Assembly (NCBI GenBank): GCA_023267655.1 | Contig: JAHFMV010000005.1 | Location: 13,200 to 67,874 of the forward strand | DNA from: Candidatus Kaiserbacteria bacterium | GTDB lineage: Bacteria > Patescibacteriota > Minisyncoccia > Phycocordibacterales > UBA2100 | Direction of reading: 5' to 3' | Length of the DNA stretch: 54,675 bases | Shown here: one piece after another, positions 22,363 through 33,187 of the stretch | Layout of the letters: every line of letters starts with the position of its first letter | How positions within the stretch are numbered: position 1 is the first letter of the stretch | Position numbers and translations under genes: made by a program | Notes under the pieces: generated by a model | Told to the model about the DNA's origin: nothing | The model's input: only the letters and a program-made list of their open reading frames with translations | Databases searched by the model: none

Positions 22363-22544
22363 TGCCCTCGGGAGGAATCCTCTCGACTCGAGTTTTACCG
22401 TCATAAAATTCGGTCTCGAGCCGGCCCTCGCGGTTGCACATTGCTATGTACAACATCGCTCCGGGCTTCAATTCCTCCGCGCACGACGCGAAGGCGTCGT
22501 GCTCTCGTGCAAAAATGATTACATTTTTGCCCTCGGGAGGAATC
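22363..22544 (-). repeat. tRNA-Arg(UCU)-linked structured element with duplicated tRNA 3' end
   Basis: Downstream of tRNA-Arg(UCU), the last 17 nt of the tRNA (22528-22544) recur exactly at 22363-22379 in direct orientation, 165 bp apart. Between them lie a perfect GCACGACGC-CTTC-GCGTCGTGC hairpin (22481-22502) and a second hairpin (22433-22454) bounded by GGAGCGATGTT and AACCGCGAGG. A homologous element follows tRNA-Arg(GCG) at 32867-33047. The layout resembles an att-type duplication around a very small insert, or a structured RNA. Confidence 0.7.
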
Positions 22545-22599
22545 GAACCTCCATCAACGGCTTAGAAGTCCGCTGTTTTATCCATTAAACTACAAGGGC
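22528..22599 (-). tRNA. tRNA-Arg (TCT)
   Basis: 72 nt, GCCCTTG/CGAGGGC acceptor with A73, anticodon loop CTTCTAA (TCT), T-loop TTCGATT. A31-G39 is mismatched next to the loop. The CCA end is absent. Its last 17 nt are duplicated 165 bp further downstream. Confidence 0.9.
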
Positions 22600-22616
22600 G
22601 TGAAGCTATCCTACCA

Positions 22617-22640
22617 GCTCCAAGCTCCAAGCTCCAAGCT
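22617..22640. repeat. CTCCAAG word repeat
   Basis: Three tandem copies of GCTCCAA (AGCTCCAAGCTCCAAGCTCC) directly below the pilus gene stop; another intergenic word patch. Confidence 0.55.
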
Positions 22641-32812: not shown

Positions 32813-32884
32813 GCTCTCGTCGTTCAACGGATAGGACACTTCCCTGCGAAGGAAGAAATGCAGGTTCGATTCCTGCCGAGGGCA
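32813..32884 (+). tRNA. tRNA-Arg (GCG)
   Basis: 72 nt: GCTCTCG/CGAGGGC with A73, D-arm CGTTCAACGGATAGGACA, anticodon arm CTTCC-CTGCGAA-GGAAG (GCG), T-loop TTCGATT. No CCA is encoded. Its 3' end is repeated with one or two changes 163 bp downstream. Confidence 0.93.
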
Positions 32885-33047
32885 AAAACGAAGTTTTTGA
32901 CCGAGAGCGCAACGCCTTCGCGTTGCGTGTGCAGGAATCGAAAGACGGAGGCGTGTTTCGTCAGTAGACGAAACGGCCGAGTCGGGGTCGACGAAAAATA
33001 CCCGCGACGGCGGGGATTTTATCGGTGACCGATTCCCGCCGAGGGCA
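32867..33047 (+). repeat. tRNA-Arg(GCG)-linked structured element with duplicated tRNA 3' end
   Basis: The tRNA 3' segment 32867-32884 recurs at 33030-33047 (CGATTCCCGCCGAGGGCA against CGATTCCTGCCGAGGGCA), 163 bp apart. Between them are CGCAACGC-CTTC-GCGTTGCG (32908-32927) and GTTTCGTC-AGTA-GACGAAAC (32955-32974). Each hairpin has the same place and loop as in the element at 22363-22544 but with compensated stem changes, so the pairing is conserved. Confidence 0.7.
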
Positions 33048-33054
33048 TAGAGAC

Positions 33055-33082
33055 GAAAAACCTGCCCTGCGGCAGGTTTTTT
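33055..33082 (+). terminator. Terminator hairpin after the tRNA-Arg element
   Basis: AAAAACCTGCC-CTGC-GGCAGGTTTTTT: stem of 11 bp with a T-tract, probably ending tRNA-Arg transcription. Confidence 0.7.
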
Positions 33083-33187
33083 CGCGATATGCCGGCCGGA
33101 GCGATGTTCCGCCAGCTGGCGGAACCGCGAGGCGAGGTCGCGAAATTTTTGAGCGTCGGCGAAAAAATATTCGTGACCAAATACGAA
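33083..33187 (+). repeat. Third, partial copy of the tRNA-Arg-linked motif
   Basis: GGAGCGATGTT, then CCGCCAGC-TGGCGG (33106-33125 as a full stem GTTCCGCCA/TGGCGGAAC), then AACCGCGAGG, GGTCGCGAAATTTT. The conserved flanks match the element at 22363-22544 exactly while the hairpin arms are different. No tRNA 3' end closes this copy. Confidence 0.55.

What the first reader, a model, noticed from the sequence alone, without database searches (positions are those of the whole stretch)
22363..22599. Structured element joined to tRNA-Arg(UCU) and closed by an exact copy of the tRNA 3' end
The last 17 nt of the tRNA are repeated in direct orientation exactly 165 bp downstream, as in att duplications of tRNA-targeting integrative elements, yet no gene fits in the insert. 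Inside are two hairpins, and conserved flanks GGAGCGATGTT and AACCGCGAGG. In the tRNA-strand RNA the second hairpin pairs with a U-G wobble where the other strand would mismatch, favouring an RNA function. It could be a minimal, trans-mobilised tRNA-targeting element or a new tRNA-linked RNA.
Basis: seen in the sequence. Interest (0 to 1): 0.88.

Follow-up and report, generated by a model that had tools for sequence, protein, structure and literature searches.

The report
Tiny tRNA-invading elements with target-matched arms
The 165-base insert behind this tRNA gene belongs to a large, undescribed family of tiny gene-free mobile elements in Patescibacteria and Elusimicrobia that slip into the ends of tRNA and housekeeping genes, bring a spare copy of the gene end they displace, and each carry a short arm complementary to their own target, which looks like an address label.

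Summary
The element behind tRNA-Arg(UCU) is one of 14 model hits in this genome; a covariance model of its core finds it in 81 of 98 relatives and in 10% of a phylum-wide sample, and a pattern scan finds it in Elusimicrobia. In 60 T-arm copies this arm pairs with whichever tRNA lies upstream (42 perfect over 11 nt). It also matches other targets: tRNA 3' ends and the 3' ends of topA, rpsI and rplE. Nearly identical cores carry different arms, and several unrelated cores share the architecture. The junction is precise (before nt 57 in 37 of 38 copies). In syntenic relatives the Arg-Val gap is 2-58 nt when empty and about 200 nt or more when occupied. In topA the two gene ends are diverged homologues, so the element brings a foreign 3' end. 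It therefore behaves as a non-coding, site-specific integrative element. That the arm selects the target is inferred. The enzyme is unknown: Y1, RT, IS110 and serine-recombinase families do not track copy number; only a Xer-like tyrosine recombinase is near-universal.

The parts
22528..22599 (-). tRNA-Arg(UCU), target gene of copy A
   Evidence: ARAGORN and Rfam RF00005, 68.2 bits
22536..22547 (-). Target segment of copy A, tRNA nt 54-65 (TTC^GATTCCTCC; ^ = junction)
   Evidence: Inverted repeat I1; 12 RNA pairs, one G-U
22528..22544 (-). X1: tRNA nt 57-73, the 3' end now used by the tRNA; on the integration model this is carried by the element
   Evidence: Direct repeat D1; native versus element-borne end inferred
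22509..22530 (-). hp1, terminator-like hairpin overlapping the last tRNA bases
   Evidence: Inverted repeat I3; many other copies have a clear terminator here
22481..22502 (-). hp2, GCACGACGC-CTTC-GCGTCGTGC hairpin directly 5' of the arm
   Evidence: Inverted repeat I2; recurs with different stems
22467..22478 (-). Target-complementary arm GGAGGAATTGAA, antisense to tRNA nt 54-65
   Evidence: varies with the target in 60 T-arm copies
22427..22462 (-). Conserved core: GGAGCGATGTT-hp3-AACCGCGAG
   Evidence: Pattern match; model R1
22380..22426 (-). hp4, right-end hairpin (GGTC..GACC type), ending at the right junction
   Evidence: Sequence; R1 match spans 22380-22468; covarying pairs
22363..22379 (-). 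X2: displaced second copy of tRNA nt 57-73
   Evidence: Exact 17-nt direct repeat; 42 nt from tRNA-Val, inside the empty-site range
32813..32884 (+). tRNA-Arg(GCG), target gene of copy B
32931..32942 (+). Copy B arm GCAGGAATCGAA, perfect antisense to nt 54-65 (32865-32876)
   Evidence: Inverted repeat I2, 12 nt 100%
32947..33030 (+). Copy B core (variant GGAGGCGTGTT..AACGGCCGAG) and hp4 ending GTGACC
   Evidence: R1 72.3 bits
33031..33047 (+). Copy B X2 (GATTCCCGCCGAGGGCA, one mismatch to X1)
   Evidence: Direct repeat D2
33044..33093 (+). Tandem unit 2: acceptor-end type hairpin with a terminator inside and a short arm (GGCATA..TATGCC)
   Evidence: Inverted repeat I1; same layout as 34 acceptor-end copies
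33092..33177 (+). Core of tandem unit 2
   Evidence: R1 80.6 bits

Best explanation
This is a non-coding, non-autonomous, site-specific integrative element of about 165 bp. It is inserted in the T-loop of the tRNA gene between nt 56 and 57. It carries its own copy of nt 57-73 (X1), so the tRNA stays whole, and the original 3' end (X2) is pushed to the far side. Its tRNA-sense strand folds as X1 - terminator - hp2 - arm - hp3 - hp4 | X2. SHOWN: insertion at a precise point, empty orthologous sites, replacement of the gene's 3' end by a diverged copy (topA), and an arm whose sequence follows the target. INFERRED: the arm (3 nt left and about 9 nt right of the junction) pairs with the target strand and selects or aligns the site, while GGTC:GACC of hp4 presents the right end. 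The substrate is a single-stranded form (RNA or folded ssDNA) of the tRNA-sense strand, and the enzyme acts in trans. The enzyme is not identified; the only recombinase near-universal in carriers is a Xer-like tyrosine recombinase.
For: Arm: in 60 T-arm copies behind many tRNA species, 42 are perfect over nt 54-64, mismatch rate 3.2%; 112 of 334 tRNAs in the fetched loci have a 10-nt arm downstream (control 2). X2: recognisable in 38 of 60 copies, left limit at nt 56/57 in 37 of 38; among 334 tRNAs 95 have X2 with <=3 of 14 mismatches (control 4), 68 have both. Empty sites: Arg-to-Val spacing 2-58 nt in 12 syntenic relatives, 207 nt here, with X2 42 nt from Val; in L248 X2 is 3 nt from Val. 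In L243 the sequence after the element resembles the tRNA end plus flank of empty L254 and L256. topA: X1 and X2 encode related but different C-termini. Retargeting: cores 0.88-0.96 identical have different arms. Several core types share the layout. Sense-strand folding: G-U 46 versus A-C 4 in hp3, 17 versus 4 in arm-target pairs. Distribution: 81 of 98 relatives, 30 of 287 across the phylum.
Against: No enzyme is linked: Y1, RVT_1 and tyrosine-recombinase counts do not track copy number (Y1 has a weak positive rho of 0.21 over all 98 genomes but -0.13 within the genus), and IS110 and resolvase have clear counter-examples. No excised circle or transcript was seen. The G-U excess in the arm falls to 9 versus 4 without nt 65, and the helix search slightly favours G-U. 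Most loci were chosen by the type-1 core, and all are draft or metagenome assemblies. How an element acquires a new arm is unexplained.
Confidence: 0.6

Rival explanations
1. Xer-like tyrosine recombinase acting on a folded single strand, as integron integrases do on attC: structure, not sequence, is recognised, so arms and cores can vary freely. This is a specification of the best explanation rather than a contradiction of it.
For: PF00589 is present in 93 of 98 genomes and in 39 of 40 with at least 5 elements; it is the only tested family found in G020 and G013, which carry 9 and 8 elements but no Y1, RVT_1, IS110 or resolvase hit. Targets are classic integrase sites. Several unrelated cores share the layout.
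Against: Zero-element genomes also have it, and copy number does not correlate. G007 has 7 elements and no hit. No attC-like R/L box was shown.
Confidence: 0.25
2. IS200/IS605-type (Y1 HUH) ssDNA transposition: arm end = left guide for the flank (NNC), hp3 and hp4 = terminal hairpins, GGTC = right guide for GACC.
For: The layout is closely analogous: guide 5' of a hairpin at each end, precise cleavage, no conventional duplication. Y1_Tnp occurs in 72 of 98 relatives.
Against: G004 (20 elements), G067 (12, 100% complete), G088 (14), G020 and G049 (9 each) have no Y1_Tnp; within the genus rho = -0.13. Known guides pair with about 4 nt, not 12 (own knowledge).
Confidence: 0.1
3. RNA-mediated insertion: the element RNA pairs with the tRNA or its gene and is inserted by reverse splicing or target-primed reverse transcription.
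For: Contiguous pairing across the junction resembles an internal guide sequence; G-U excess on the sense strand; some Elusimicrobia copies carry an extra structured insert of about 210 nt without an evident gene.
Against: No Rfam intron or ribozyme match. RVT_1 is absent from 24 of 40 genomes with at least 5 elements. Foreign topA ends need DNA exchange.
Confidence: 0.12
4. Host-functional tRNA-linked RNA or terminator, duplicated by chance.
For: A terminator is often included; the arm can sequester the tRNA 3' half; X2 is lost in 22 of 60 copies while the arm is kept.
Against: About 8 of 42 tRNAs occupied here; sporadic between orthologues; topA and ribosomal protein genes also hit; different cores at the same tRNA.
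Confidence: 0.05
5. Scars of ordinary integrase islands (attL plus attR after internal deletion), or template-switch repeats spread by transformation and homologous recombination.
For: X1/X2 look like att repeats; one locus has an element-like right end 3.3 kb beyond the tRNA with genes between (L063).
Against: A conserved covarying core in hundreds of copies, arms matched to each target and uniform length are not expected of deletion scars. Template switching does not explain one fixed junction and arm position across two phyla.
Confidence: 0.1

Closest known systems
tRNA-targeting integrative elements (tyrosine-integrase islands, ICEs, satellites)
   Same: Insertion in the T-arm or 3' end of tRNA genes and other gene 3' ends; gene restored by an element-borne 3' end; direct repeat at the far side.
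   Different: About 165 bp, no integrase and usually no gene; one family hits many tRNAs, with an arm matched to each.
IS200/IS605-derived non-autonomous elements, REP/BIME with RAYT
   Same: Two hairpins, possible guide sequences pairing with both cleavage sites, trans mobilisation.
   Different: Target match of about 12 nt, gene-end replacement, no link to Y1 transposases in the data.
IS110 bridge RNA (PMC11208160) and TIGR-Tas (PMC12045711)
   Same: Structured RNA-sized element with a reprogrammable target-complementary stretch; TIGR is reported in CPR bacteria.
   Different: One contiguous arm, no recombinase gene; IS110 found in only 7 of 98 relatives; no tandem-spacer array.
Integron gene cassettes (attC)
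   Same: Folded single-strand sites of variable sequence and mobile short units are conceptually similar; tandem copies occur.
   Different: No attI or integron integrase seen, targets are gene 3' ends, and the arm matches the target.
Rickettsia palindromic elements
   Same: Roughly 100-150 bp palindromic, no protein, found in genes and RNA genes (own knowledge).
   Different: No target-complementary arm or gene-end replacement known to me.

Membership tests
tRNA integrative element | Duplication of the gene 3' end flanking the insert | tested here: met
   X2 in 38 of 60 T-arm copies, control scan largely without
tRNA integrative element | Empty orthologous sites | tested here: met
   Arg-Val spacing 2-58 nt empty versus 207 nt occupied
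tRNA integrative element | Integrase encoded in the element | tested here: not met
   No gene in the insert; L063 cargo ORFs are kinase-like and lipoprotein-like by eye
IS200/IS605 (Y1) non-autonomous element | Y1 transposase available in the host | tested here: not met
   Absent in 6 of 40 genomes with at least 5 elements
IS110 / bridge RNA | DEDD_Tnp_IS110 recombinase present | tested here: not met
   7 of 98 genomes; absent from the own genome
Group I or II intron / known ribozyme | Match to an Rfam family | tested here: not met
   No match for the element at E <= 5; only tRNA in six further loci
Retroelement | Reverse transcriptase available | tested here: not met
   RVT_1 absent from 24 of 40 genomes with at least 5 elements
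Serine-integrase element | Resolvase-family recombinase available | tested here: not met
   No hit in G003 (12 elements), G020 (9), G031 (13), G073 (18), G097 (15)
Tyrosine recombinase substrate (Xer, integron-like) | Tyrosine recombinase available | tested here: inconclusive
   93 of 98 genomes, but also in element-free genomes
Tyrosine recombinase substrate (Xer, integron-like) | Binding and cleavage of the folded strand | not testable with these tools
   Needs biochemistry

The most novel reading that the evidence does not exclude
A new, programmable mode of site-specific DNA integration: a gene-free element of about 165 nt whose single-stranded form carries an antisense arm that picks its target by about 12 bp of pairing. 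It can be retargeted by changing the arm together with the carried gene end, and a trans-acting (possibly housekeeping) recombinase does the chemistry. It is spread through Patescibacteria and Elusimicrobia.
Probability: 0.4. Interest if true: 0.95.

Novelty: categorically new. Interest (0 to 1): 0.86.

Why it matters
Guide-directed integration known so far comes with its own protein (IS110 bridge RNA, CRISPR-associated transposons, retargetable introns). Here hundreds of copies show target-matched arms with no gene attached, in streamlined genomes often thought poor in mobile DNA. If the arm does the targeting, the family is a natural library of guide/target pairs for finding a new recombination enzyme. 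Even if the arm is only structural, the family explains many of the odd sequences and tRNA-end duplications behind Patescibacteria tRNA, topA and ribosomal-protein genes, which annotation would otherwise misread.

Tried and rejected
Y1/RAYT, RVT_1, IS110 and resolvase were each tested for co-occurrence and do not track the element; tyrosine recombinase is uninformative because it is near-universal. No exact pattern match in IMG/VR, and no similar DNA in the phage or plasmid collections. Not in Rfam. Pattern hits in Prevotella (two), Burkholderiaceae, SAR116 and Acidobacteria look like chance matches in other sequence and were left out of later analyses. An intron reading (removal of X1-to-hp4 restoring the tRNA) was considered: X1 already completes the tRNA and X2 often mutates, so removal is not needed. 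Simple local target-site duplication was rejected because topA X1 and X2 are diverged homologues. Considered an integron array in L113: each element there sits behind its own tRNA. Elusimicrobia-wide counts could not be run. A possible kink-turn in GCGAUG/CGCGAG was noted but not tested. Literature searches found no description; preprints and most subscription papers are not held.

Full report
WHAT WAS CHECKED. The window carries tRNA-Arg(UCU) at 22528-22599 (-). The last 17 nt of the tRNA recur exactly 165 bp downstream. The insert has no plausible gene and folds far better than shuffled sequence together with the tRNA (z = -8.9). The second copy behind tRNA-Arg(GCG) behaves alike (z = -5.9). 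A third complete copy lies elsewhere in the genome behind tRNA-Leu(UAG).

ANATOMY. Read on the tRNA strand, each T-arm copy is: tRNA nt 1-56 | X1 (nt 57-73) - terminator-like hairpin - hairpin hp2 - a 12-nt arm complementary to tRNA nt 54-65 - a 3-4 nt stretch - conserved core GGAGCGATGTT-hp3-AACCGCGAG - hp4 closed by GGTC..GACC | X2 (second copy of nt 57-73). In the window copy the arm is GGAGGAATTGAA against TTCGATTCCTCC; in copy B GCAGGAATCGAA against TTCGATTCCTGC; in the Leu copy GGGAGACTTGAA against TTCAAGTCTCTC. Each gives 12 RNA pairs, with one G-U in the Arg(UCU) and Leu copies.

A LARGE FAMILY. The pattern GGAGCGATGTTN{8,36}AACCGCGAG occurs in 19 of 98 relatives and the reversed control in none. 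A covariance model (R1, 34 sequences, 22 pairs, 16 with compensatory changes) finds 14 copies in the own genome, at least one in 81 of 98 relatives, and 30 of 287 genomes drawn across the phylum. It has no Rfam match.

THE ARM FOLLOWS THE TARGET. Of 60 distinct T-arm copies, 42 arms are perfect over nt 54-64 (G-U allowed) and the mismatch rate is 3.2%. Across 334 tRNA genes in the fetched loci, 112 have a 10-nt antisense of their own T-arm downstream with at most 1 mismatch, against 2 for a reversed control (these loci are enriched because most were fetched for the core, and a few hits are convergent tRNA neighbours). A second class targets the tRNA acceptor end, typically GC^ACAAG (34 copies by position). 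Protein-gene targets are the 3' ends of topA (11 loci), rpsI and rplE, most with a recognisable matching arm (gene names assigned from the translated C-termini, own knowledge). Cores 88-96% identical carry different arms (for example L039 Asp and L017 Met; L064 Tyr and L033 Lys), so elements are retargeted. Conversely, at the orthologous tRNA-Arg(UCU) gene different relatives carry different, apparently unrelated cores with the same arm-and-X2 layout.

IT INSERTS. X2 is recognisable in 38 of 60 T-arm copies and exact in 20; identity to X1 starts at nt 56/57 in 37 of 38, and in most ends at or within 3 nt of nt 73. tRNA-Arg(UCU) and tRNA-Val(UAC) are neighbours in many relatives. Twelve empty sites have 2-58 nt between them. 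This genome has 207 nt, and X2 is 42 nt from tRNA-Val; L248 has 198 nt, with X2 3 nt from Val. In L243 the sequence after an acceptor-end element resembles the tRNA end and flank of the empty site in L254 and L256. In topA, X1 and X2 encode related but different C-termini (L024, L143, L192, L201), as expected if the element arrived from another species with its own gene end, and not as expected of a fresh local duplication. In the own genome about 8 of 42 tRNA genes are occupied. Tandem units occur (L049, L135, copy B).

WHICH STRAND, WHICH ENZYME. In hp3, G-U pairs exceed A-C mismatches 46 to 4 (8 to 2 without the fifth pair), and in arm-target pairs 17 to 4 (9 to 4 without nt 65). This favours the tRNA-sense strand acting as a single strand, RNA or ssDNA; the tests do not separate the two and the arm test is mildly biased by the search. 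Counts of Y1_Tnp, RVT_1 and phage integrase domains do not explain copy number (genus rho -0.13, -0.02, -0.14; over all 98 genomes 0.21, 0.04, -0.02). IS110 is in 7 of 98 genomes, and resolvase is missing from several rich carriers. G020 (9 copies, including topA) has none of these except one tyrosine recombinase. A Xer-like enzyme acting on a folded strand is therefore the leading candidate, without direct evidence. A helper that comes and goes is also possible; phage, plasmid and viral-contig collections gave nothing.

MECHANISM PROPOSED. The sense strand of an excised element folds so that the arm can pair with its own left end (9 nt) or with the target (12 nt, including the 3 nt left of the junction), while GGTC:GACC exposes the right end. 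Strand transfer at C^R joins GACC to target nt 57 and target nt 56 to the element's left end, which restores the gene. Shown: anatomy, precise junction, empty sites, foreign 3' end, arm-target covariation. Inferred: pairing selects the target, a circle or single strand is the intermediate, the enzyme acts in trans. Unexplained: how a new arm and a new gene end are acquired together.

COMPARISON. It works like a tRNA-site integrative element in what it does to the gene, and like a guided element in carrying a target-complementary stretch, but it meets the membership tests of neither: it has no integrase, no IS110 and no matching transposase. No description was found in the open-access full-text library, which holds no preprints and lacks most subscription papers.

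LIMITS. Draft and metagenome assemblies; rough E-values; most loci selected for one core type; no expression or excision data.

Noticed in passing
L063:1700-5300 (uncultured Elusimicrobium RUG11046): Behind tRNA-Val(GAC) and a normal element, a second element-like right end (..GTGACC|AATTCCCCTGTACTGGGCACC) lies 3.3 kb on, with a kinase-like and two lipoprotein-like ORFs between: possibly a cargo-bearing version.
   Followed up: partly
L088:4270-4540 and L082:3060-3320 (Elusimicrobia): About 210-240 nt insert without an evident gene between arm and core, closed by a long stem with the shared sequence GGGTTGGCAAG/CTTGCCAACCC: an extra RNA-like domain.
   Followed up: partly
L240, L247, L236, L251, L053, L100, L155, L065 and others: Several other core types (e.g. 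GAGTATATT..CGAAA..GTAC..CTGTAAG hairpin; GGGGTCGGGAGAAC..GTGGAGGAAGG..) with the same antisense arm and often X2, not caught by model R1.
   Followed up: partly
L172:1471-1567 (G000:C14): A degenerate core unit sits in frame inside a glyoxalase/VOC-like ORF (..GETGVGPRRKAGGASGAEAGPSTSPAGED..), like palindromic elements that insert in reading frames.
   Followed up: partly
L169, L171, L173, L174 in G000: A recurring variant GAGACGGGGTTGGGGCCCCGTCGCAAGGCCGGAG.. without an adjacent target gene; sub-family with unknown target.
   Followed up: no
L127:1-1500: 16S rRNA fragment interrupted by what looks like an intron with a LAGLIDADG-like ORF; weak Rfam group-II-D1D4-1 hit (36.4 bits, cut-off 35); an element follows in the downstream spacer.
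   Followed up: no
window 22611-22640: Short tandem CTCCAAG repeat directly upstream of tRNA-Arg(UCU).
   Followed up: no
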